NCBI GenBank assembly: GCA_024398845.1
Contig: JAKSIM010000022.1
Coordinates: 1-44,493 of the forward strand
Origin: Fibrobacter sp.
Lineage (GTDB): Bacteria > Fibrobacterota > Fibrobacteria > Fibrobacterales > Fibrobacteraceae
Direction of reading: 5' to 3'
DNA length: 44,493 nucleotides
Shown here piece by piece: positions 19,667 through 31,703 of this stretch. Position 1 is the stretch's first letter; every line of letters starts with the position of its first letter. A model generated the notes under the pieces. It was not told the DNA's origin and made no database searches. It saw only the letters and a program-made list of their open reading frames with translations. The translations under genes and the position numbers were made by a program.

Positions 19667-20245
19667 TCATCTTATCGGTATATCAATCTCTAGCGAAGAT
19701 TTTTTGGTTTTCACAAAGGCTTTTAGCACTTTACCCTTTGGTTTTGCATAAACAGGAACCACCAGCAAATTGCTCACCCCCCGATCTTCACTAGGAGTCG
19801 CCTCGGTATCTGGCAATGTCGTCGTGAAGAACGGTTTTTTACCCTTGTCAAAAATAGTATAAGTTAGTGTGCGCACCATTCCCTTTTTAATCTGATGGGT
19901 CGGAACTTGGAAGTAAATGATACCACCCTTGGGTACACGGCGGAGACTATCCTTGATTTCTTGTTCCGTGGCGAAATCGGCTTCCATCGCCATACGCACG
20001 TCTTTCTTTACCTTATCGACACTTTCATAAAGTACCGACACATTAAATTTGGCATCTTCAGGAATCGCATCTGGACGAACATCGCGAATCTTTGAATTAT
20101 TTTGATAGTATTCCCAACGGCCATCATCATGTAAAATTACAGCCGCACCATTGGAGGTTGTCGCTACAATATCTTCACCAAAAACCGAAGAAACAACAGC
20201 TAAAAAGCATACAAGCACACATTTGCGCCAGCAATTCTTACTCAT
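19667..20245 (-). CDS. Small secreted protein of unknown function (DUF3157-like N-terminus)
   Basis: About 192 residues from the ATG at 20245, chosen because AGGAG lies eight bases upstream; a longer frame is rejected. The N-terminus is a signal peptide (MSKNCWRKCVLVCFLAVVSSVFG). The segment VATTSNGAAVILHDDGRWEYY resembles the short domain of periplasmic proteins often called DUF3157. The rest (about residues 60-190) is beta-rich, with phrases such as KGGIIYFQVP and LLVVPVYAKPKG. No catalytic motif is visible. It is transcribed with the exonuclease gene. Confidence 0.7.
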   Translation of the reverse strand: MSKNCWRKCVLVCFLAVVSSVFGEDIVATTSNGAAVILHDDGRWEYYQNNSKIRDVRPDAIPEDAKFNVSVLYESVDKVKKDVRMAMEADFATEQEIKDSLRRVPKGGIIYFQVPTHQIKKGMVRTLTYTIFDKGKKPFFTTTLPDTEATPSEDRGVSNLLVVPVYAKPKGKVLKAFVKTKKSSLEIDIPIR

Positions 20246-20403
20246 AAATTTACTCCTGCCAGGTCTTGGACCCGCCATCCCCTTTTAATATATATTGGAA
20301 GTTGTTTAAAAATTACAATCGCCTAAAAAAACAGCCTTAAGAGAACACAAAAAATACTCCAATTGCTATTTTCTTAAAAAATTGCGCAGCAAAGATAAAA
20401 AAA

Positions 20404-21285
20404 ATGGATCAAAAAGTTCGTTTCGCGCCAAGTCCCACCGGCTATCTTCATGAAGGGCACCTCCTTTCGGCGCTCTACGTGTGGGCGGCGGCCCAAAAAT
20501 GGCACCTCAAAATCCATCTGCGCATCGAGGACCACGACCAGAGCAGGGCTCGTCCCGAATACATCCAGAGCATTTACCAGGACCTTGAACGCTTCGGCTT
20601 TCAATGGGACTCGACTAGCATCCAAAGTGAGCGCCACCCCATTTACAAGGCAGCCCTCAATAAACTCGAAGAACAGCACCTGGTCTACCCCTGTTTTTGC
20701 AGCCGAAAGCAACTTGAAGCCGAGAACCCCAAAAGCGAGACCGGCGAAATCATATACCAGGGCAAGTGCCACACGCGGTTCAATACGCAAAGCAAGTCCA
20801 TAGACGAACCGCACAACTTGCGCGTCATAATTCCAGACAAAGTAATCCATTGGCACGACGAACTCCTCGGAGACTTTGACGAGAATCCAAAACTCCAATG
20901 CGGCGATTTCCCGATTATAGATCGCGACAACCAGTGGACCTACCAATTTGCGGTTTGCGTAGACGACATGGACGAAGGCATAACCCACATTGTGCGTGGA
21001 GAGGACATTCGCAGTTCCACAGCGAGGCAAATTGCGCTAATGCAACTTTTGGGGCAAAAAGAACGCCCCATTTACCTGCACCACCCCCTAATTGTGGACC
21101 CAAACGGCAAAAAGCTCTCCAAACGCGAAAAAGCCCATAGCCTTAGGCAAGATCTGGAATCAGGCATTTCCACCGAGGAACTCCTCGGAAAAGTATGTTT
21201 TGAAGCCCGATTACAGCCCAATAGGCAGCCGATTCCCTTAAATGAAGCTATTTCAATGGTATGCAACAATTTAATATCAATATAA
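20404..21285 (+). CDS. gluQ: Glutamyl-Q tRNA(Asp) synthetase
   Basis: The product has 293 residues, typical for GluQ and far shorter than GltX because the anticodon-binding domain is absent. It activates glutamate and transfers it to queuosine at the wobble position of tRNA(Asp). The class I motif is FAPSPTGYLHEGH (residues 7-19) and the KMSKS equivalent is KKLSKR. The zinc ligands expected in this family are all present: Cys97, Cys99, Tyr118 and Cys122. RIEDHDQSR (residues 40-48) matches the family's R-(I/L)-E-D-x-D signature. The helicase-like gene starts 31 bases downstream. The ribosome-binding site is poor. Confidence 0.92.
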   Translation: MDQKVRFAPSPTGYLHEGHLLSALYVWAAAQKWHLKIHLRIEDHDQSRARPEYIQSIYQDLERFGFQWDSTSIQSERHPIYKAALNKLEEQHLVYPCFCSRKQLEAENPKSETGEIIYQGKCHTRFNTQSKSIDEPHNLRVIIPDKVIHWHDELLGDFDENPKLQCGDFPIIDRDNQWTYQFAVCVDDMDEGITHIVRGEDIRSSTARQIALMQLLGQKERPIYLHHPLIVDPNGKKLSKREKAHSLRQDLESGISTEELLGKVCFEARLQPNRQPIPLNEAISMVCNNLISI

Positions 21286-21310
21286 ATCCCTAAAAAAAAT
21301 TTATATTGAT
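21276..21310 (+). repeat. 12-bp perfect AT-rich inverted repeat at the gluQ/helicase-like junction
   Basis: ATCAATATAAAT (21276-21287) and ATTTATATTGAT (21299-21310) are exact complements around an 11-base CCCTAAAAAAA spacer. The left arm contains the gluQ stop and the right arm ends six bases before the ATG at 21317. It could be an operator or a weak hairpin. No Shine-Dalgarno lies between it and the start. Confidence 0.6.
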
Positions 21311-21316
21311 TTATAT

Positions 21317-24300
21317 ATGCCACAAATCAGTCCTTCTGAAATTGTCAATAAAATTTGCAAGGAATCGGAGCTTTTTGATTCCAAGGATCGTTTGTTGAAT
21401 TTTTCAACCAAGGGCGAGTTTCAAACGCCCTTGATTCTCGAAGCCGGTGACCTTTTTTACGAAAAATTGGCTCAGTCCAAAACACCGCTTCCGTTGGACA
21501 CATTCCTGCCCATTTCGCAGGCACTCACCGCCCAGCAAAAAACGGATATCGAAGAACAGTTCAAAACCGTATTCCGCGAAAAGTCCGAGGACTTTTTATG
21601 TTCTGACTTGTACATGTTGCTGGGATTTTTAAAGTGGGACGGAAACGCCCTTGCGCCAAGCCTACTTGTGCCCCTTGATGTGGACCCCGAAAAGAATACC
21701 ATTTCACTCTCTAAAAGCGGTCCCATCGAAAACGTCATTTTACGCGAAAGACTTTTAAGTACCATAACGCTCCCCACCGTCGAAGAAGCTACATCCAACG
21801 GTCAATTCAACATCTTGCTCTATTTTTCGCTATTTGAAAAAGCGATTCTGCAAGAAAAAAAATGGAAGTTTACGCGTCACGGATTGTGCCTAGCTTTCTT
21901 TGACACAAACCGTCTCAGACTCAAAAAGCGTTTAAAGCAGGGTTTCCCCGACAAACAAACGAACAAGTCCCCGTTCCTTGGTCCGCTCTTTAGCGAAGAA
22001 GGATTCCAATTCAAAGAATCGGTTTTTGAAGAAGCGAACTTCAACAACATTTTCAACCCGGCGGACCATTACTTTTTATACCCCACAGATTCGCACACCA
22101 GCAAGGTGATGCTCGACGCGCTTGACGACAAGTTCGAAGCCTATGCCATTCAAACGGTTCCAGGAACAGCCAAAGCGCAAGTCGCAGCGAACATCACCGC
22201 CGAAGCCATAGCCAAGGGCAAACGTACACTCGTTGTTGCCCGTAGGGCAATTTCCAAGCAAAATTTCTGCTCGGCCTTCCGCCCAATGTTCCGTTCCTTT
22301 GACGGTCCCGAACGCGAGGTCATTGAACAAGACCTGCGCAAAACCCGCGGAGCCCTGAGCGCCTACTACAACGCTATTAACCATTCCATCGAGCCCGCCA
22401 AGGCACCGCTTTCTGACGTCTTAAACGAGTTCATGAAATACCCGCCCTCAAAAGCGAGAATTCCGGAATCTGTTTTCCAGTGCGTATCGAGCCTTTCATT
22501 AAAAGATTACGAGGCCCTTAAGCAAATTCTTGAACAGATTGTGGACCTGTACTTTAACCAGGGTGGCATTGAAGCCAGCAGGGCTTTTAATAAAATCAAG
22601 ATTTCAAATATCGAAGAAACCACCAAGGCGAAGGTTGCAGCAGAACTCCAAACGGCCGCAGCCAAAGTACAAGACCTAAAGCCTGTCATCAAGATTTTTG
22701 AAAGCATCGGGCTATTCCCCGCAGGTATTTACATTTCGGGTTTAATAGACATCATTGACTTGATTCAAAAGAACTTCAATGAAGACACTCCCGAATACGA
22801 GGATTGGGAACTGCGCTCCAGCAACTGGGCCGCATACCAAGACACCCTCAAGGCGCTCCCCGAAGCAGGCGACAAGTGGGTGCGCTACCGCAGGCAGACT
22901 TCCGAAATTTACACCGAAAACGCTGTAGACGAGAACATCTTCTCGGCACGTGAAGAATTCGCCGAAAGCCTCAAGGCAACTCTCAAGGGCCTTTCGGACC
23001 ATTACCGTCTGTCCCGCAAGCGCTTGCTCAGCGTCATCAAGAACCCCAAGTCCATCGAAAGCGACGCCCAGCTTTTGGACCTCATAGATACGCTTATCGA
23101 ATTGCAAGAGAACAAGCGCGCCTACAAGGACACCTCCGTTCTCGGCAATCACCTGCTAGGCAAGGACTGGCAATTCGAAAAATCCAATTGGGTTGAACTC
23201 AACAAAAAAATCATATACCTTTACAACTTCCGTGAAATTCACAAGAACGACCCGTTCCTGGAACTAATGTTAATCATTCTCGAAAGTTGGCACGTTTTAA
23301 AACCGCACATTGGCGAATTCAAAAAATACTACAACGACTTGCAAGCCTTGCTTGCGTCCATCCGCAACATCAGCAAGGACCTGGACCTAGAGAATCCTCT
23401 CGAGAGCTTGAGCATCGACAAGTGGTTCAACGAAATAGACTCTTGGAACAAAAACTGGGACCGTTTAGACACCCACCTGCAGTTAACGGGTTTGGTGAAC
23501 CAAATTGCCGCCGCCGGTTGCGAAGAACTAGCTCAATACGCGGGCAATGTTTCGACAATCAACAAGGAACTTGCCAAGGAATTCGGGCGTTACTGGTCCG
23601 GTTCTCAAATCCAGCAAGTCACTAAGAACTGCCCGGAACTGTTCTCGCTCGCTCCTAAGGACCGCTACCTCAAAGGCAAGGAATACCGCAACCAGCTGGA
23701 CCAGTTCTGCAACGCAAACTTCAGAGCCGTTCACGCGGCAGTCGACCAGAATCCGGACCTGCTCAAGATTTTGAATCTGGATGCAACCTTCAACCTGGCA
23801 AACGAACATTTTGATACCGCTATTTTGCTGGACGCCGACTGCATCACCGTAGCCGAATCCCTTGTTTCGACCTACATTGCAGACAAAGTCATTCTTATTG
23901 GCGACCCGCATTCTCCGATACTCGAAACGCAACCATTCGACGCCTTCCGCGACGCACTTCCGCGCCAAAGTTCATTCTTCCAAGAGAACATCTTGGCAGC
24001 GGCGCTTCGCAGAGGCATCGCGACTCGCGAACTCTGGTACACAAGCAGCTACAGCGATATTGCCCTCACGAACTTTGCGAACGCCAAGATTTACAATTAC
24101 GGCATTAAGCAATACCCCATGCCGAATCGCGAAAAATCCAGGAGCGAATCCATCAAGTGCGTTTCAGACAAGGTCATGGAAATCGCCAAGGCCGCCATTT
24201 GGCATGCCGAAAAGCACCCGGGTCAGACCCTTGGTATTATCGCATTCCATCAGGCACGTTGCTTTGAAATTGAATCGGCCATCAAGGCACTTGTGGCAAA

Positions 24301-25417
24301 GGATTCCCCGGCAGCGCGCTTCTTTGCGCAAAACAATCCGCAAACGCGCTACTACATTAAAACGCCAGATCGCGCCGTAGACAAGTACCGCGACACCATA
24401 CTCGTATGCATTGACGTCGAAGGCACCGACAAGATTTCAACAGAACGTAGACTCTCGGTCTGCACAACTCTTGCAAAACAAGATTTGCAGGTATTCATCT
24501 CCGAAAGCGACATGGAGAAAAAGGCGAAGTCCAACCTCTTCTGGGAATGGATTCAATATCTGCAAACAAAGGAAGGCATCGAACCTCAAACAGCAGAACA
24601 GGTTCCTTCAGTGCTCTTCCCGCAAATCGTCGAAGCCCTCCAGTCCGAGAATATCACTGTAGAAAACGTATTCGCCCCGGGCGGCATTCCCGTTGGACCG
24701 GTCATCGTAGATGCGAACAATAAAAAGCGATTCCTCGCCGTCGTAGAAGACGACTGCACCACAGAACGCTTCCGCGAATCCATTGAAGACCGTGAATACG
24801 TTCGCCCAACAATTTTACGCCAGCTGGGTTGGAAGGTCCTTAACGTTTGGCAGCCATTCTGGTACATGGCCTACCAAAGCGAAAAGGACCACATGATTGC
24901 AACCATCGCCATTGAACAGAGCGTTGCCCCGCCGCCTCCCGAAAACGAAGACGAACAAACGGACAATAACGTTTCGAGCAATGAACCCGATTTGCATATC
25001 GAGCAGTACCAAGTGCTGCATCCAAAAATCGAGGGCACACCGCACGACAAACCCATTGCAGAACTCCCGGCGGCGTCCCTCATTACGCAGCTCAAGTTCT
25101 ACGTAGACCACGAAGCACCAATTCACGAAGAATTGCTGTTGCACCGTCTTTTGGAATTGCATCACGTGGATCGCGCGGGCCCCATGCTCCAGCAAGCTTT
25201 GAACGATGCCATCAAGCAAGGCTTCCAAAAGCAGCGCTTTATTAAAACAGGCAAGTTCTTCTACTCCATCAAGAACCCGCCGGTAGTACTCCGCGACCGC
25301 AGCATGCGCCCCGACAACGAGCGCAAGTTCGCCTACGTCTCTCCGGAAGAGCGAGCCCTGCTCCCCGCCTCAGTGGACGAGCGCGGCATCAAGCAGCTCC
25401 TTGGCTTACTTGAATAA
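21317..25417 (+). CDS. DUF4011/SF1-helicase/endonuclease-like/DUF3320 protein with degenerate ATPase motifs
   Basis: The product has 1366 residues. The order of domains matches large DUF4011-type helicases: residues 20-210 DUF4011-like (RLLNFS, DLYMLLGFLKW, LLVPLDVD); 255-310 helicase 1A; a helical insert (about 400-760); 830-870 Walker B and motif III region; 905-1062 helicase 2A; 1095-1198 MTES/Vsr-type nuclease fold (VIVD, FLAVVEDD, LRQLGWKVLNVW); 1255-1320 DUF3320 (APIHEELLLHRLLEL, GKFFYS). The active sites are eroded: Walker A is VPGTAKAQ (281-288) instead of GPPGTGKS, Walker B has Asp839-Ala840 instead of Asp-Glu, motif III is GDPHSP, the VQGDE motif is AVDKY (1020-1024), and the motif VI Arg is Leu1052. 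The reading frame is intact over 4.1 kb, so the protein is probably used, perhaps as a scaffold or nucleic-acid binder. Active relatives have been linked to phage defence. Domain calls are by eye. Confidence 0.7.
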   Translation: MPQISPSEIVNKICKESELFDSKDRLLNFSTKGEFQTPLILEAGDLFYEKLAQSKTPLPLDTFLPISQALTAQQKTDIEEQFKTVFREKSEDFLCSDLYMLLGFLKWDGNALAPSLLVPLDVDPEKNTISLSKSGPIENVILRERLLSTITLPTVEEATSNGQFNILLYFSLFEKAILQEKKWKFTRHGLCLAFFDTNRLRLKKRLKQGFPDKQTNKSPFLGPLFSEEGFQFKESVFEEANFNNIFNPADHYFLYPTDSHTSKVMLDALDDKFEAYAIQTVPGTAKAQVAANITAEAIAKGKRTLVVARRAISKQNFCSAFRPMFRSFDGPEREVIEQDLRKTRGALSAYYNAINHSIEPAKAPLSDVLNEFMKYPPSKARIPESVFQCVSSLSLKDYEALKQILEQIVDLYFNQGGIEASRAFNKIKISNIEETTKAKVAAELQTAAAKVQDLKPVIKIFESIGLFPAGIYISGLIDIIDLIQKNFNEDTPEYEDWELRSSNWAAYQDTLKALPEAGDKWVRYRRQTSEIYTENAVDENIFSAREEFAESLKATLKGLSDHYRLSRKRLLSVIKNPKSIESDAQLLDLIDTLIELQENKRAYKDTSVLGNHLLGKDWQFEKSNWVELNKKIIYLYNFREIHKNDPFLELMLIILESWHVLKPHIGEFKKYYNDLQALLASIRNISKDLDLENPLESLSIDKWFNEIDSWNKNWDRLDTHLQLTGLVNQIAAAGCEELAQYAGNVSTINKELAKEFGRYWSGSQIQQVTKNCPELFSLAPKDRYLKGKEYRNQLDQFCNANFRAVHAAVDQNPDLLKILNLDATFNLANEHFDTAILLDADCITVAESLVSTYIADKVILIGDPHSPILETQPFDAFRDALPRQSSFFQENILAAALRRGIATRELWYTSSYSDIALTNFANAKIYNYGIKQYPMPNREKSRSESIKCVSDKVMEIAKAAIWHAEKHPGQTLGIIAFHQARCFEIESAIKALVAKDSPAARFFAQNNPQTRYYIKTPDRAVDKYRDTILVCIDVEGTDKISTERRLSVCTTLAKQDLQVFISESDMEKKAKSNLFWEWIQYLQTKEGIEPQTAEQVPSVLFPQIVEALQSENITVENVFAPGGIPVGPVIVDANNKKRFLAVVEDDCTTERFRESIEDREYVRPTILRQLGWKVLNVWQPFWYMAYQSEKDHMIATIAIEQSVAPPPPENEDEQTDNNVSSNEPDLHIEQYQVLHPKIEGTPHDKPIAELPAASLITQLKFYVDHEAPIHEELLLHRLLELHHVDRAGPMLQQALNDAIKQGFQKQRFIKTGKFFYSIKNPPVVLRDRSMRPDNERKFAYVSPEERALLPASVDERGIKQLLGLLE

Positions 25418-25486: not shown

Positions 25487-25903
25487 TTAGCGAATCTTAA
25501 CCACAAAGGCGTTGATGTTATAGGCCGAAAGTTCACGAGCCTTGTCGTCGGCGGCCTTCTTGGTCGTCCATCCACCACCGCGAAGCTTGTAGAACGGAGC
25601 ATCGAATACCACCTGGATGGCATAGCCGGTACTTGCCGAGATTTGAGCTTTGCGACGTTGAGCCGCATCAAAGTCAGCCACAGCTTCGAACTGCAACATA
25701 TAATAGCCATCAGCGGCCTTGCCCTTGGTATTATTAGCCTGAGCCTTGTTTGCAGCAGCATTCTCCGCCATAGAAGACGTATCTCGCAGAGCAGAGCTCA
25801 ATACCGGTTTATATTCATTCCCGCGGAAAAGGGAATCCAAATCCGTCGGTTCACCAGCCCACGCAAGGGCACACATCGAGAGGGCAATAAGCAATTTTCG
25901 CAT
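25487..25903 (-). CDS. Secreted SPOR-domain protein
   Basis: The product has 138 residues: a signal peptide (MRKLLIALSMCALAWA), a low-complexity Ala/Asn/Lys spacer, and a C-terminal SPOR-like domain (about residues 66-138: GYYMLQFEAVADFDAA, YKLRGGGWTTKKAADDKARELS, AFVVKIR). SPOR domains bind denuded peptidoglycan, often at division sites. It has no transmembrane anchor beyond the signal, so it is likely periplasmic. Terminators flank it on both sides, so it is probably transcribed alone; the promoter must lie in the 70 bases after the fibro-slime gene. Confidence 0.82.
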   Translation of the reverse strand: MRKLLIALSMCALAWAGEPTDLDSLFRGNEYKPVLSSALRDTSSMAENAAANKAQANNTKGKAADGYYMLQFEAVADFDAAQRRKAQISASTGYAIQVVFDAPFYKLRGGGWTTKKAADDKARELSAYNINAFVVKIR

Positions 25904-25974: not shown

Positions 25975-28900
25975 TTATTTCTTCTTGGATTTTCCCTTGG
26001 CGTTACCGTGACGGATACCCCAGACTTCGGTGTTATCCGTCATCTTCTTCTGCTTGCCGAACTTGCCAAGCACAACATAGGAACTCCACTTTACAATGTA
26101 GGCACCGGCACCCACCAAGCGGTTCTTGTCGGAGGTTCCGTTCCAAGCAACAAACACGTTCTTATTTGCAGTCAAGCAATTATTACCCGCACCAAAGTAG
26201 GCTGTGTCAGTACAGGCAACCTTAAGTGCCTTGTGAGCCACAAAACCACCGAGGTTCGTGAACACGTTCATTTCAAAGTCAAGGTAAATCTCTTCCGGCG
26301 GAACTTCAGCATATTCCGTTCTTTCCTTACTCAAGGACTTCATATCGGTCTTAAGGAACAAGCCCAAGGTATTCGGGTTGTTTTCCTTGATGGAGTCCAG
26401 GTTCCAGTTAGACGGGATGAAGGTCAATTCAATCGGAGTCTTGTCCTTCTTAGAAACATCAGAAGTAGCAAGGTTAATAGAAGAGTGGGCCGTAGCAGAA
26501 GCACCTTCGATCAACACCCACGGGCTCGGCAAGCGATCCGTAGAAGCGTAATCGGTCGGAGTGTTCCACTTGATTCCATCATTAGGACGGAGAGTATCGG
26601 CACCCGGAACATTGATGTTCACAGTATCCTTCCAGGTCACGAGATCCGTACGGAAACGGATGTAGTCACCCACATGCGGAGACGGATTCTGCACGTCATC
26701 GTTACGGAAGCGGAATTCAATAACATCGCTAACAGCCATCTGGCCGTTTTCAGAACGAGCGGACCTATAGCGAGCGTTTTCGCTCAAGTCAGTCGCAGAG
26801 TTCAGGTAATAGCTGAACGCTTCCTTCTTGAGATCATCCGAGGACGTTTCAATGGTCACCGGTTCAGAGTAAGTAACTTCCAGTTTATCGAAGTTCTGAG
26901 ATTCGGTAGCACGAACAATAGCACTCATGATAATCGGAGCAATGCGGTCGGTAATAGTTCCATCAAAGGCCTGAACCACAGCGCGCTTCTTATCTTCGAA
27001 CTTAGCCCAAGAGCTAACCTTACCCGTACCGGCAGTCTTTACGTTCTTAGAGAACTGCTTGCCACCGAATTTGAGCACCGGCAGGCAACGGACTACACCG
27101 TTTTCGTCAGTCGTTTCGCAAGTAGCGGCTTCCTGAATTTCGGCCTTAGTGATAGCGACAGAATCCTTTTCATTTTCCCAGTACACAAAGACAGAGTCCG
27201 GCAGAGAGTCCTTTGCAAAATTACGGTTATAGTAGATAGCAATGGAGTCTGCGATACCATCCAGGAACTTTTGACCATCCGGAGCGTATTGTGACGGCAT
27301 TTCAAACTTGTTCGGAGCTTCAGCACCCTGAGCGTCGAAAATGTCGACCAAGACCGGGAACGGTACCGGCGGTTCACGGAAGTAGATCGGCGTATATTCG
27401 GCATGAATCAAGGCCGGATTTTCACCCGTAATCTGGATTGTTGCCGGAGAATGGATACTCGGATCGGTATCGTAGCGATATTCCTTCTGAGAACGGATAG
27501 AAATCATCGCCTTACCGTTTACAATCTTCATATTGCCTTCGTCAAGAGCTTCAATCTTAGCAGAGGTCTGAGAACCCATTTGCAGGTTGAAGTTACATGC
27601 ATCGCAGAAGCTGCATTCGCCAGCGCCGTTGCACTTGAATGCTGCAATGTAGAAGTCGTAGAAGCTACCCACCCAGCGTTCGTTAGGCGGAGTATCACCG
27701 GTAATCGGCTTTTCGGTAGTAACGCTATCTTCCATAAACATGAGCTTCGGAGCATAGAACGCAACCGTAGCAGGGGTACGTCCGGTAACACCTATGGTGT
27801 AAGTTGAATAAGCACTCTTCATAGAGAGCAGTTCAGCAGTTACATAAATGGTATCAACACCGGTTTCGCCAACAGTACGCATTTCGTTAGCGGTAAGCAC
27901 ACGGAAACCACCTTCTGCCGTAGCATCGGACACATAGACCGTCAAACCGGACTGTACATCCAACGTATAGTTCTGCTTCGGAGCGCTAGTCACATCCATT
28001 TCGAGCGGAGAAGAGCAAGTTGCAGCACCACCTTCGCACGGGTCAGCGATAGCAGAAATGTACAGCGGAATCATTTCGCCACCAAAGGCCTCGCCCACGT
28101 AGTGGTAGTCGCGGCCAGCAATGGCAGTACCATTGGAGTCAATAGCAATTGCATCACGAGAAGCAACATCAAGAGAACCGTTAAGCTTGAAGGTAATCTT
28201 TTTGCTCTTGCCTTCAATCGTCACAACGAGGTTGTAACGGCCAGGTCCAAGCGTACAAGCATCTTTCTTGATTCTCGGGATAGACGGATTCGTGAGGTCA
28301 ATACAACCCTTAGAAACTTCTCCAAGCGGAACAGTTTCCATCACAACGTCGCCATTACCACGTTCAAGCTTGTAGCTAACAATGTCGCCAACATCGCAAA
28401 TTGTATCAACAGTCGAAGCACCAGAAAGTCTAGAGGCGCAACCACCGTCTCCACTCTTAATCAAGCACACCTGGTCAACTTCCGTTGCCGGATCCTGCGG
28501 ATCCTTGCTCGTCTTAAGCATAATACCAGTCTTTTGCTGGATGTACATATTCGTCTTGATACGCACGTTACTCATGGTCGTACGGCGGTCGCAGAAGAAG
28601 ATGTCAATATCGTAGGTCTTGCCTTCGACGAGGGCACCACTCTTACCCACAAAATTATCCAACTTCACATAACCAGGAGCAGCAAGGTGAGTACCACCAA
28701 GGTCCACGGCCAGCTTGTTATCGATAAACACCCAAATATCATCGTCACCACGGAACGAGAAGTTCAGGCCCTTAGAGAACACGAAGTTTGCATGAGATTC
28801 AAAGCAGAACTGCTGGTTACGTCTAACAACAGTAGCTTCCTCTTCTTTATCAGTACCCCAGCGAGGTGTTGCACCAGTCGTGGAAGCCGTAGCAAGTTTT

Positions 28901-30516
28901 CCTGTATTCGGCACATAAAGAGGCCAATCATTAGGTAATTCATCAGTACAGTAATCACCCCAGCACCAAACATCATCCTGTATCGTTTTACTTCCAGTAA
29001 CGGTTTGCGGGAAAAGATCTGCCAAATCGCCACCTCCGGCATAAAGGCCTTCGCAATCGTGGCTACCATAGCCGTCCCAACCCGGGCCCTTGCACACCAG
29101 GTCCATACGCGGGGCATCTTCGGTGCTCTTGGGGTCAACCTTTCTCATATATGTGGTCATATACACAGGCCCCTGAGCAGCATGCTTGGTACGGGCAGCA
29201 GCCACCGGACTCTGATTAGCGTCAGCCGCTATAATAACAGCATCCGTCGTTTGCTCTACAGGGTAGAAACCACCTTGGATATCAACACCAGGACTCGTAA
29301 AGTGATCCGAGTCAAATTCCCACTTGTTATCGCTTGCTCGGCCAAAGGGCATTTCAAAGCAAGACATTTCGTTCACGCCCTGGGTGTAGTTAAACATCAT
29401 GTCAAAGATTTCAGCACTCGGGAAGCACTTCTTGGCATTGGCCGAATTGGAGAGGTGCGGTTTTTTATCGGGTCCAAGGGTGTCTACAATAATGCCCGAA
29501 GTTACACCAATACAACTCTTAACATAATTCACAGCCTGCGCTTCCGAGATACCCAAAGCGCCTTTCTGGCATCCCTCATTAAATTGTCCTGCAGCTGTAT
29601 AATAGTCGCAAGAGAACGACGGGTGCAAGCTAGCATCGGTATCGTAAATAATAGCAGCCAAGCTATAAGAGCAAATACCTTCAACTTCAGGATAAGCCCC
29701 ATAAAAACCATTGCTGGTTTCATCTGGCCATTGGTTTTGATCCGGAATAAAATAGATAGTATTTGTTTCAAAAGCGTCAAAATAGGTATTCAAGGGAATC
29801 GGGGTTGCAACGTCGCCTTCTTCTTGCAAACCATTCACGCCAAGAGCCTTATCAAGAGTCTGGGCATCACTACGCATGAACACCACGTCATCAGAAATGG
29901 CTTCACCAAACCAAACATGGTAGAACCAACCGCAGTGGTCGGGGTCTGCGGTCATCATGGTAGCCGTTTGACCACCATCAAGGCTCACCATAGGCACAGC
30001 AGCCATCCAGGCGTCGTCATCAGGAGGAATCATAATATAGATGTACTTGGCATCGGGCGGTTCCGACTGCACTTCTGTTTTGCCTTCGGTTTTGGGATTT
30101 TCGAAGACATAAATTTCGTTTTCATCGCCCGGACATCTAATGAGCGATTTTTGGAAAGTATTACGTTCTTCGCTGACATTATAGCTCTTGGATTGTACAA
30201 CCTTTGGAGGAGGATAATCCACACTTGTACTGTTGACAAAGACAAACCCATTGTCTGTCGTATTCGGCTGAGGGCTAATTACGCTGGCAAGATCTAACGT
30301 AATATAGCCAGCATCATTCTTTGCAGCTTTTGTAGGAACTGGATACGCTTTATTAGCGAAATATACATAGCTTGTTCCCCAGGAATCGGGCAACTTGACA
30401 TGTACGGTCCCAAGACAACCTGCAAATGCACTCTGCACTCCAGCAACAAGCAACATCAGAGCCAGTACACGCTCAAACAGGGAAGTTGTTCTTTTCTTCA
30501 TAATAGTTCTATCCAT
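25975..30516 (-). CDS. Giant secreted fibro-slime domain protein
   Basis: The product has 1513 residues from an ATG at 30516 with GGAGA eight bases upstream; a second ATG five codons later has a poorer site. A signal peptide (KKRTTSLFERVLALMLLVAGVQSAFA) is followed by a Cys-rich N-terminal region and the fibro-slime domain at about residues 490-680, with its hallmark FRGDDDIWVFID (about 585) and YDIDIFFCDRR. This PA14-like beta-sandwich is expanded in Fibrobacter and is associated with outer-membrane proteins that adhere to cellulose. Ig-like segments follow to about residue 1400, with a late part typical of surface proteins (LGLFLKTDMKSL). The C-terminus is strongly basic (GNAKGKSKKK) and shows no obvious type IX tail. 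It is flanked by its own terminator. Confidence 0.87.
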   Translation of the reverse strand: MDRTIMKKRTTSLFERVLALMLLVAGVQSAFAGCLGTVHVKLPDSWGTSYVYFANKAYPVPTKAAKNDAGYITLDLASVISPQPNTTDNGFVFVNSTSVDYPPPKVVQSKSYNVSEERNTFQKSLIRCPGDENEIYVFENPKTEGKTEVQSEPPDAKYIYIMIPPDDDAWMAAVPMVSLDGGQTATMMTADPDHCGWFYHVWFGEAISDDVVFMRSDAQTLDKALGVNGLQEEGDVATPIPLNTYFDAFETNTIYFIPDQNQWPDETSNGFYGAYPEVEGICSYSLAAIIYDTDASLHPSFSCDYYTAAGQFNEGCQKGALGISEAQAVNYVKSCIGVTSGIIVDTLGPDKKPHLSNSANAKKCFPSAEIFDMMFNYTQGVNEMSCFEMPFGRASDNKWEFDSDHFTSPGVDIQGGFYPVEQTTDAVIIAADANQSPVAAARTKHAAQGPVYMTTYMRKVDPKSTEDAPRMDLVCKGPGWDGYGSHDCEGLYAGGGDLADLFPQTVTGSKTIQDDVWCWGDYCTDELPNDWPLYVPNTGKLATASTTGATPRWGTDKEEEATVVRRNQQFCFESHANFVFSKGLNFSFRGDDDIWVFIDNKLAVDLGGTHLAAPGYVKLDNFVGKSGALVEGKTYDIDIFFCDRRTTMSNVRIKTNMYIQQKTGIMLKTSKDPQDPATEVDQVCLIKSGDGGCASRLSGASTVDTICDVGDIVSYKLERGNGDVVMETVPLGEVSKGCIDLTNPSIPRIKKDACTLGPGRYNLVVTIEGKSKKITFKLNGSLDVASRDAIAIDSNGTAIAGRDYHYVGEAFGGEMIPLYISAIADPCEGGAATCSSPLEMDVTSAPKQNYTLDVQSGLTVYVSDATAEGGFRVLTANEMRTVGETGVDTIYVTAELLSMKSAYSTYTIGVTGRTPATVAFYAPKLMFMEDSVTTEKPITGDTPPNERWVGSFYDFYIAAFKCNGAGECSFCDACNFNLQMGSQTSAKIEALDEGNMKIVNGKAMISIRSQKEYRYDTDPSIHSPATIQITGENPALIHAEYTPIYFREPPVPFPVLVDIFDAQGAEAPNKFEMPSQYAPDGQKFLDGIADSIAIYYNRNFAKDSLPDSVFVYWENEKDSVAITKAEIQEAATCETTDENGVVRCLPVLKFGGKQFSKNVKTAGTGKVSSWAKFEDKKRAVVQAFDGTITDRIAPIIMSAIVRATESQNFDKLEVTYSEPVTIETSSDDLKKEAFSYYLNSATDLSENARYRSARSENGQMAVSDVIEFRFRNDDVQNPSPHVGDYIRFRTDLVTWKDTVNINVPGADTLRPNDGIKWNTPTDYASTDRLPSPWVLIEGASATAHSSINLATSDVSKKDKTPIELTFIPSNWNLDSIKENNPNTLGLFLKTDMKSLSKERTEYAEVPPEEIYLDFEMNVFTNLGGFVAHKALKVACTDTAYFGAGNNCLTANKNVFVAWNGTSDKNRLVGAGAYIVKWSSYVVLGKFGKQKKMTDNTEVWGIRHGNAKGKSKKK

Positions 30517-30818: not shown

Positions 30819-31703
30819 ATGCAAGATCTGGATCAGACAATCGCTACGCCGGGAAAAACGTTGCATTTCAAAAAATTCGAATTACGCCCGCACCTGATCG
30901 TTTTGTACCCCCAGACCATGTTCAAGCAGATCCCTCTCGACGTAGGTACCGTAATCCTCGGTCGCGGGCAAGAAGCCAATATTAGGTTGGAAGACGAGCT
31001 TGTCAGCCGCAAGCACTGTTCCATCCACTTTGACGGTAAGTCCGTAACTGTCACCGACTTAGGGAGCACCAACGGAACGTTTGTCGATGGTCAGCAAATC
31101 GAATCCCGCATTCTGGAAACCGACAACCGCCTCCAGATTGGCAAGATGGTTTTGAAAATTGACTTCAAGGACCAGAACGAAGAAGCCTTTGACCGGGAAC
31201 TTTTTGAAGCCGCGACCATGGACCCGCTCACCAAGATTTCGAATAGGCGCACCTTTTTTGATCGTGCCCTTGGGGAACTTGCCCTCGCCCGCCGCAACAA
31301 CTTTTACGTACATGCCATCATGGTTGACGCAGACCATTTTAAACAAGTGAACGACACCTGGGGGCACCAGGCTGGCGACATGGTTCTTAAAGAAATCGCG
31401 CGCCTGCTCAAGCAAGAAAAACGTGAATCCGACCTGCTCGCCCGCTATGGCGGAGAAGAATTTATACTGCTCCTTGCAGGTATTGGCCCCGAAGACGCCA
31501 AAAAGAGCGCCGAACGCCTACGCCTTGCCGTCGAGCGCCACCGCTTTTGCTGGAAGGACACCATTATTCCGGTGACCATTTCCCTTGGACTCGCAAGCAA
31601 AGTCGGAGAAGAAATCCCGACTATCGAGGCGATGATTGCCGAGAGCGACAAGCTGCTGTACGTTGCCAAAGAAGCCGGAAGGAACCAAGTCGCTACCGCA
31701 TAA
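30819..31703 (+). CDS. FHA-GGDEF diguanylate cyclase
   Basis: The product has 294 residues. GGAG lies eight bases upstream of the ATG. Residues about 45-115 form a forkhead-associated domain (GRGQEANIRL, LVSRKHCSIHF, DLGSTNGTFVDG) that binds phosphothreonine. Residues about 130-290 form a GGDEF domain with the active-site GGEEF at 211-215 and an intact inhibitory I-site RESD at 202-205. It should make cyclic di-GMP in response to a Ser/Thr-kinase signal and be subject to product inhibition. There is no membrane segment, so it is cytoplasmic. No kinase, EAL or PilZ gene is in the window. The ferredoxin gene follows after 22 bases. Confidence 0.93.
   Translation: MQDLDQTIATPGKTLHFKKFELRPHLIVLYPQTMFKQIPLDVGTVILGRGQEANIRLEDELVSRKHCSIHFDGKSVTVTDLGSTNGTFVDGQQIESRILETDNRLQIGKMVLKIDFKDQNEEAFDRELFEAATMDPLTKISNRRTFFDRALGELALARRNNFYVHAIMVDADHFKQVNDTWGHQAGDMVLKEIARLLKQEKRESDLLARYGGEEFILLLAGIGPEDAKKSAERLRLAVERHRFCWKDTIIPVTISLGLASKVGEEIPTIEAMIAESDKLLYVAKEAGRNQVATA

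What the first reader, a model, noticed from the sequence alone, without database searches (positions are those of the whole stretch)
21317..25417. Intact 1366-residue DUF4011-type helicase relative with nearly every ATPase motif lost
The domain order (DUF4011, SF1 helicase halves with a long insert, MTES/Vsr-type nuclease fold, DUF3320) is retained without a break, yet Walker A (VPGTAKAQ), Walker B (Asp839-Ala840), motif III (GDPHSP), motif V and the motif VI arginine (Leu1052) are all changed. The nuclease fold keeps an Asp and Glu (Asp1132, Glu1144). An intact frame of this length argues against decay. I infer a pseudo-helicase clade with a new role, possibly regulatory, structural or defensive.
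Basis: partly seen in the sequence, partly recalled or inferred. Interest (0 to 1): 0.85.

Follow-up and report, generated by a model that had tools for sequence, protein, structure and literature searches.

The report
Core dead helicase-nuclease of Fibrobacter
Nearly every Fibrobacter genome examined carries, usually beside the same neighbour genes, a protein of about 1,366 residues with the predicted shape of a helicase fused to a nuclease but without key catalytic residues of either, so it likely works as a non-enzymatic scaffold that would bind nucleic acid or partner proteins.

Summary
The frame at 21317-25417 encodes a predicted Upf1-like SF1 helicase fold, a Vsr-type nuclease fold and a likely winged helix (AlphaFold2, pLDDT 89.5 and 87.5). 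Of 186 family sequences none keeps the motif II Asp or Glu, motif V Gln or Glu, or motif VI Arg; 120 of 120 helicase-like relatives keep all. The nuclease is altered too: its canonical first Asp is absent in 186 of 186. The gene is not decaying: 78 of 80 genus genomes and six other genera carry it, dN/dS is 0.015-0.157 in the 40 closest pairs, it sits beside gluQ in 66 of 68 loci checked, and a TATATT box lies 6-9 nt before its ATG in 65 of 65. Conservation has moved: the motor is relaxed, while the insert core (481-660) and C-terminus, weaker in relatives, are now the best-conserved parts. I conclude it is a single-clade pseudohelicase-pseudonuclease related to anti-phage PDC-S37/ProA proteins and fixed as a core gene. 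It likely works RecC-like, as a non-catalytic scaffold. Losses, conservation and synteny are shown; the scaffold role, nucleic-acid binding and partner are inferred.

The parts
21317..25417 (+). Whole gene, 1366 aa pseudohelicase-pseudonuclease
   Evidence: Open frame; 78 of 80 genus genomes have a match
21302..21307 (+). TATATT box 9 nt before the ATG, likely -10 element of a leaderless promoter
   Evidence: Box in 65 of 65 loci; distance to ATG 6 nt in 55, 7 in 2, 9 in 8. Promoter role inferred
21317..22051 (+). DUF4011-like N-terminal region, residues 1-245
   Evidence: Pfam 16.1 bits, below cut-off here; 41.7 in sister-genus locus L032
22052..22324 (+). First motor part, residues 246-336
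   Evidence: AlphaFold2 model and Upf1/UvrD match
22157..22180 (+). Altered Walker A, VPGTAKAQ
   Evidence: GPPGTGKSQ in 120 of 120 relatives; Gly at 285 in 1 of 186 and Ser/Thr at 287 in 4 of 186 here
22325..23746 (+). Long helical insert, residues 337-810
   Evidence: Best PDC-S37 stretch 337-793; helical in the model
22757..23296 (+). Insert core, residues 481-660, the part whose conservation rose
   Evidence: Column score 0.577 here against 0.355 in relatives; the rest of the insert stays variable
23747..24556 (+). Second motor part, residues 811-1080
   Evidence: Column score 0.456 here against 0.754 in relatives
23825..23842 (+). Altered Walker B, LLDADC
   Evidence: DE in 120 of 120 relatives; D838 and E839 in 0 of 186 here, D839 in 186 of 186
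23900..23917 (+). Altered motif III, GDPHSP
24371..24394 (+). Altered motif V, RAVDKYRD
   Evidence: Gln and Glu kept in 0 of 186; Arg1025-Asp1026 in 186 of 186
24467..24478 (+). Altered motif VI, Leu1052 for Arg
   Evidence: Arg in 120 of 120 relatives, 0 of 186 here
24614..24931 (+). Vsr-type nuclease fold, residues 1100-1205
24710..24712 (+). Asp1132, clade-specific, in the turn after the second strand
   Evidence: 185 of 186 here, 0 of 120 relatives; strand limits
24746..24754 (+). Glu1144-Asp1145-Asp1146; Glu1144 and Asp1146 are kept from the relatives
   Evidence: Glu1144 185 of 186, Asp1146 186 of 186
25007..25414 (+). C-terminal region with predicted winged helix (DUF3320 overlap), residues 1231-1366
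   Evidence: Three helices then strands, block pLDDT 89-97; column score 0.642 here against 0.5
20404..21285 (+). Upstream gluQ-like gene (glutamyl-Q-tRNA synthetase type, name from recall)
   Evidence: Pfam tRNA-synt_1c; beside the gene in 66 of 67 loci, not in G072
25487..25903 (-). Downstream SPOR-domain gene, convergent
   Evidence: Pfam SPOR; found in 58 of 67 loci

Best explanation
This protein, core to Fibrobacter and shared by six sister genera, keeps the predicted fold of a helicase-nuclease but has lost key catalytic residues of both parts, and it likely acts as a non-enzymatic scaffold that would hold nucleic acid in that fold while its insert core and C-terminal predicted winged helix would dock a conserved partner. 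Shown: the losses, their single clade, purifying selection, near-fixed gene neighbourhood, and the shift of conservation from motor to insert core and C-terminus. Inferred: that it binds nucleic acid, that the frozen insert core and C-terminus contact a host partner, and that its ancestor was an anti-phage protein of the PDC-S37/ProA kind. The closest working analogy is RecC, whose helicase and nuclease domains are both inactivated and serve DNA handling and Chi recognition.
Against: No binding, ATPase or nuclease assay exists; lost motifs do not prove a dead enzyme. Net charge is negative (mean -26; relatives -40), not what a dedicated nucleic-acid binder would suggest. Lys286 is kept in 165 of 186 and Glu1144/Asp1146 in nearly all, so a ligand or metal site may remain. 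Only the insert core is frozen; its flanks (331-480, 661-810) score 0.339 and 0.372. No partner was identified. One genome (G072, 8% contaminated) has the gene away from gluQ on another contig. Two copies look interrupted (G014 one stop, G015 split). The comparison set is the top 120 hits of one relative, 13 clusters at 70% identity, so its motif uniformity is partly by selection.
Confidence: 0.6

Rival explanations
1. Defence role kept without catalysis: the protein still senses phage, or works as decoy or inhibitor for an active defence enzyme, and triggers another effector.
For: Its nearest profile is the candidate defence family PDC-S37 (368 bits); ProA and Hhe anti-phage models also match.
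Against: Defence genes are usually patchy and mobile (recall); this one is core and mostly syntenic. The insert core, variable in relatives, is frozen here. Neighbours are housekeeping-type genes.
Confidence: 0.15
2. Residual enzyme: the protein still hydrolyses a nucleotide or cuts nucleic acid through a rearranged site using Lys286, Asp839, Asp1132, Glu1144 and Asp1146.
For: Asp839 186 of 186, Asp1132 185 of 186, Glu1144 185 of 186, Asp1146 186 of 186, Lys286 165 of 186.
Against: Motif II Asp and Glu, motif V Gln and Glu and motif VI Arg are gone in 186 of 186. Predicted strands 1124-1131 and 1139-1145 put Asp1132 in the turn, likely at the far end of the hairpin from Glu1144 (geometry inferred, no distance measured).
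Confidence: 0.12
3. tRNA or translation factor: the protein works with the neighbouring GluQ-type enzyme on tRNA.
For: gluQ lies beside it in 66 of 67 loci; both are missing from genus g4 (g4 shows only the weak hits typical of other genomes).
Against: Genus g7 (G103) keeps the protein without gluQ; G072 has the two on different contigs. The conserved TATATT box suggests separate transcription. G108, G081 and G151 have a gluQ-type gene but not this one.
Confidence: 0.1

Closest known systems
PDC-S37 / ProA anti-phage helicase-nucleases (DUF4011 - SF1 - MTES_1575 REase - DUF3320)
   Same: Same domain order, including the long insert; best profile match
   Different: Key catalytic residues lost, about 160 residues shorter (mean 1366 against 1530), core and syntenic rather than sporadic; far below the ProA cut-off (237 against 1500 bits)
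RecC of RecBCD
   Different: RecB-type ancestry rather than Upf1-like; part of RecBCD. No partner known here
Deinococcus radiodurans PriA pseudohelicase
   Same: Lineage-wide motif loss in an otherwise conserved helicase (PMC4504706, abstract read)
   Different: PriA keeps DNA binding and a DnaB interaction, shown by assay; here the nearest kin are defence proteins and no job is known
Core DUF4011 gene of Pseudomonas aeruginosa
   Same: A large DUF4011 gene found in every isolate, flanking a defence hotspot (PMC10250203, passages read)
   Different: Its catalytic state was not examined here

Membership tests
SF1 helicase, active | Motif I, II, V and VI catalytic residues | tested here: not met
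   D838, E839, Q1021, E1024, R1052: 0 of 186 each
SF1 helicase fold | Two RecA-like motor domains of Upf1/UvrD type | tested here: met
PDC-S37 (PADLOC) | Profile match over the protein | tested here: met
   368 bits, E 2.4e-110, three stretches; no curated cut-off given
ProA anti-phage protein (NF058533) | Score over curated cut-off | tested here: not met
   237 against 1500 bits; the helicase-competent relative L051 also misses it with 1241
Hhe anti-phage protein (NF042953) | Score over curated cut-off | tested here: not met
   82 against 2000 bits
DUF4011 (PF13195) | Score over Pfam gathering score | tested here: not met
   16.1 against 22.2 here; met by relatives L031, L032, L037, no hit in L043
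MTES_1575/Vsr nuclease (PF18741), active | Asp, Glu-x-Asp-Gly and Tyr-His of the relatives | tested here: not met
   D1127 0, G1147 0, Y1150 0, H1151 1 of 186; E1144 185, D1146 186
Vsr nuclease fold | Fold | tested here: met
DUF3320 winged helix | Winged-helix topology | tested here: inconclusive
RecC-like pseudo helicase-nuclease | Works in a complex with active motor subunits | not testable with these tools
   No partner data
Anti-phage defence system | Phage protection | not testable with these tools
   Needs assay; genomic signs (core, syntenic) speak against it

The most novel reading that the evidence does not exclude
In the ancestor of Fibrobacter and its sister genera an anti-phage helicase-nuclease was captured beside gluQ, lost both catalytic activities, and became a RecC-like core machine whose formerly variable insert core is now a frozen docking surface for a cellular nucleic-acid process.
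Probability: 0.4. Interest if true: 0.78.

Novelty: new variant of a known kind. Interest (0 to 1): 0.62.

Why it matters
Here much of a bacterial family carries one vertically inherited, apparently doubly inactivated relative of anti-phage enzymes, with intact kin to compare against. If the reading holds, it lets one test directly how an immune helicase-nuclease becomes a non-enzymatic core part, and its newly conserved surfaces name where to look for the partner. It also warns that a DUF4011 or PDC-S37 hit in Fibrobacter should not be counted as a defence system without checking the motifs.

Tried and rejected
Decay: rejected by dN/dS and intact frames. Sequencing or assembly artefact: rejected by 186 family sequences from several sources. 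Replacement of AddAB/RecBCD: PF12705 rings in 36 of 111 family genomes, 27 of 93 carriers and 9 of 18 non-carriers, no clear pattern (set). An active orthologue in the same slot of genomes lacking the gene: none seen beside gluQ in G108, G081 or G151 (gene calling there was crude and missed gluQ itself in two of the three). Relatives of the dead clade outside the family: none at E 0.001 among 167 phylum genomes; 65 loci of the genome collection all carry Fibrobacter, Fibrobacteraceae, Fibrobacterales, Fibrobacteria or Fibrobacteres titles; a profile search of the protein database gave 165 proteins among 7981 scored candidates, 120 of them listed. PDB by sequence gave one row, E 0.28. Foldseek of the C-terminal model had no match under 0.001; its top rows include Toxoplasma mitoribosome proteins that I believe from recall to be RAP-domain proteins, a lead not followed. 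Papers: Fibrobacter with DUF4011 0, PDC-S37 0, ProA with DUF4011 0, DUF4011 alone 3, DUF3320 alone 1. Of those four I read passages of two (PMC10250203, PMC3710099) and only the listing of the other two; nothing seen describes this protein, and subscription journals are mostly not held. The names SF1 motif I-VI, Walker A/B and GluQ come from recall plus alignment.

Full report
What is there. The frame at 21317-25417 is open for 1366 residues. Pfam recognises MTES_1575, DUF3320 and DUF4011 only below cut-off, but PADLOC's PDC-S37 model matches with 368 bits and NCBIfam's ProA and Hhe with 237 and 82 bits, far under their cut-offs. Some sister-genus copies pass Pfam cut-offs.

Distribution. A search of 80 genomes of the genus finds it in 78, and in 40 of 40 of those at least 90% complete and at most 5% contaminated. 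The two without it are 65% and 71% complete. Of the 78, 74 match within nine residues of both ends in one uninterrupted frame, one (G014) has a single TAG, one (G015) is split and two (G025, G078) are partial. In the family 94 of 111 genomes match. One of these (G084) is a stray short hit, so 93 carry it: 78 in the genus and 15 in genera g5, g6, g7, g9, g10 and g11. None was found in g2, g3, g4 (apart from G084's stray hit) or g8, nor in one of three g11 genomes. The 167 genomes of the phylum give the same 94 matches and no more. Named loci include F. succinogenes and F. intestinalis ATCC 43854.

Losses. I aligned 186 family rows (the 120 listed hits and 66 loci, which may overlap in source) with the 120 listed hits, relatives of the motif-intact protein in L051. 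Every relative keeps GPPGTGKSQ, DEASQ, QGDERD, the motif VI Arg and the nuclease Asp, Glu-Cys-Asp-Gly and Tyr-His. In the family, motif II Asp and Glu, motif V Gln and Glu, motif VI Arg and nuclease Asp1127 are kept in 0 of 186; Gly285 in 1, Ser/Thr287 in 4, Gly1022 in 26, Lys286 in 165, motif III Asp863 in 128. Two g11 copies contain a GKT in the loop, shifted by two residues from the aligned position. Glu1144 (185) and Asp1146 (186) stay. Asp1132 (185 of 186, against 0 of 120 relatives) and Asn1135 (184, against 0) are clade-specific; Asn1134 is in 186 of 186 but also in 31 of 120 relatives.

Selection and history. In the 40 closest pairs listed, dN/dS is 0.015-0.157 (pairs are not independent). 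In a tree of 28 family and 12 related rows the two groups part on one branch with support 100. That was the quick method; the program warned of long branches and the root is unknown. gluQ lies beside the gene in 66 of 67 loci and the SPOR gene was found in 58 of 67 (flanks of 1.5-5 kb). When checking I looked at one more genome, G072 (8% contaminated), whose gluQ is on another contig, well inside it; there the gene keeps its SPOR side. So the count is 66 of 68. G103 keeps the gene without gluQ. G108, G081 and G151 have a gluQ-type gene but not this one. A TATATT box ends 6, 7 or 9 nt before the ATG in 55, 2 and 8 of 65 loci; among 49 other frames it lies 4-9 nt before the start in 3. I read this as a leaderless promoter, by inference.

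Where selection now acts. With representatives under 70% identity (43 family, 13 relatives), the mean column score of the motor is 0.494 and 0.456 against 0.881 and 0.754 in relatives; residues 481-660 of the insert score 0.577 against 0.355 and the C-terminus 0.642 against 0.5. Other regions: nuclease 0.563 against 0.774, N-terminal region 0.500 against 0.576, insert flanks 0.339 and 0.372 against 0.442 and 0.389. So only the insert core and the C-terminus rose; the nuclease fold fell but is still the third-best region. None of 1306 circular shifts of the difference profile reached the observed insert-minus-motor contrast (0.537, largest 0.502; neighbouring shifts overlap, so this is descriptive). 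The 31 database representatives alone show the same order.

How it likely works. A protein under purifying selection that keeps its predicted fold but not its key catalytic residues is best read as a scaffold. RecC is the documented example with both an inactivated helicase and an inactivated nuclease domain (PMC1185551, passages); Deinococcus PriA is a lineage-wide pseudohelicase that still binds DNA (PMC4504706, abstract). I infer nucleic-acid binding and a host partner; neither is shown, and the net negative charge (mean -26; relatives -40) does not argue for strong binding.

Novelty. The kind (pseudohelicase) is known. A doubly altered DUF4011-type protein fixed as a core gene was not found in the papers searched (most seen only as listings).

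Noticed in passing
window 30819-31703 (+): FHA domain fused to a GGDEF diguanylate cyclase domain.
   Followed up: no
window 25975-30516 (-): 1513-residue PA14-domain protein that often keeps its place near the gene (53 of 67 loci) but falls to 30-52% identity, lower than its neighbours gluQ and SPOR.
   Followed up: no
L051, L052, L053 (genomes G043, G018, G045): Long PDC-S37 relatives in open frames of 1537, 1986 and 1963 residues, found sporadically in the genus besides the core dead copy. The catalytic motifs were read in L051 only.
   Followed up: partly
L023 (G014) and L067 (G015): Two copies of the gene look interrupted, one by a stop and one split; assembly error or real loss not told apart.
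   Followed up: no
L147 and L148 (G072): gluQ and the dead helicase lie on different contigs, with gluQ's upstream and the helicase's downstream neighbours kept; rearrangement or mis-binning.
   Followed up: partly
window 19667-20278 (-): DUF3157-like neighbour that lies elsewhere in several genus genomes while gluQ and the dead helicase stay together.
   Followed up: partly
L043 and L044, residues near 285: Genus g11 copies have a shifted GKT in the former P-loop; chance or relic unknown.
   Followed up: no
model of residues 1071-1366: Top Foldseek rows are Toxoplasma mitoribosome proteins, and FASTKD4 FAST1-FAST2-RAP appears among the VIA-align rows, hinting at non-catalytic RNA-binding kin of the Vsr fold.
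   Followed up: no
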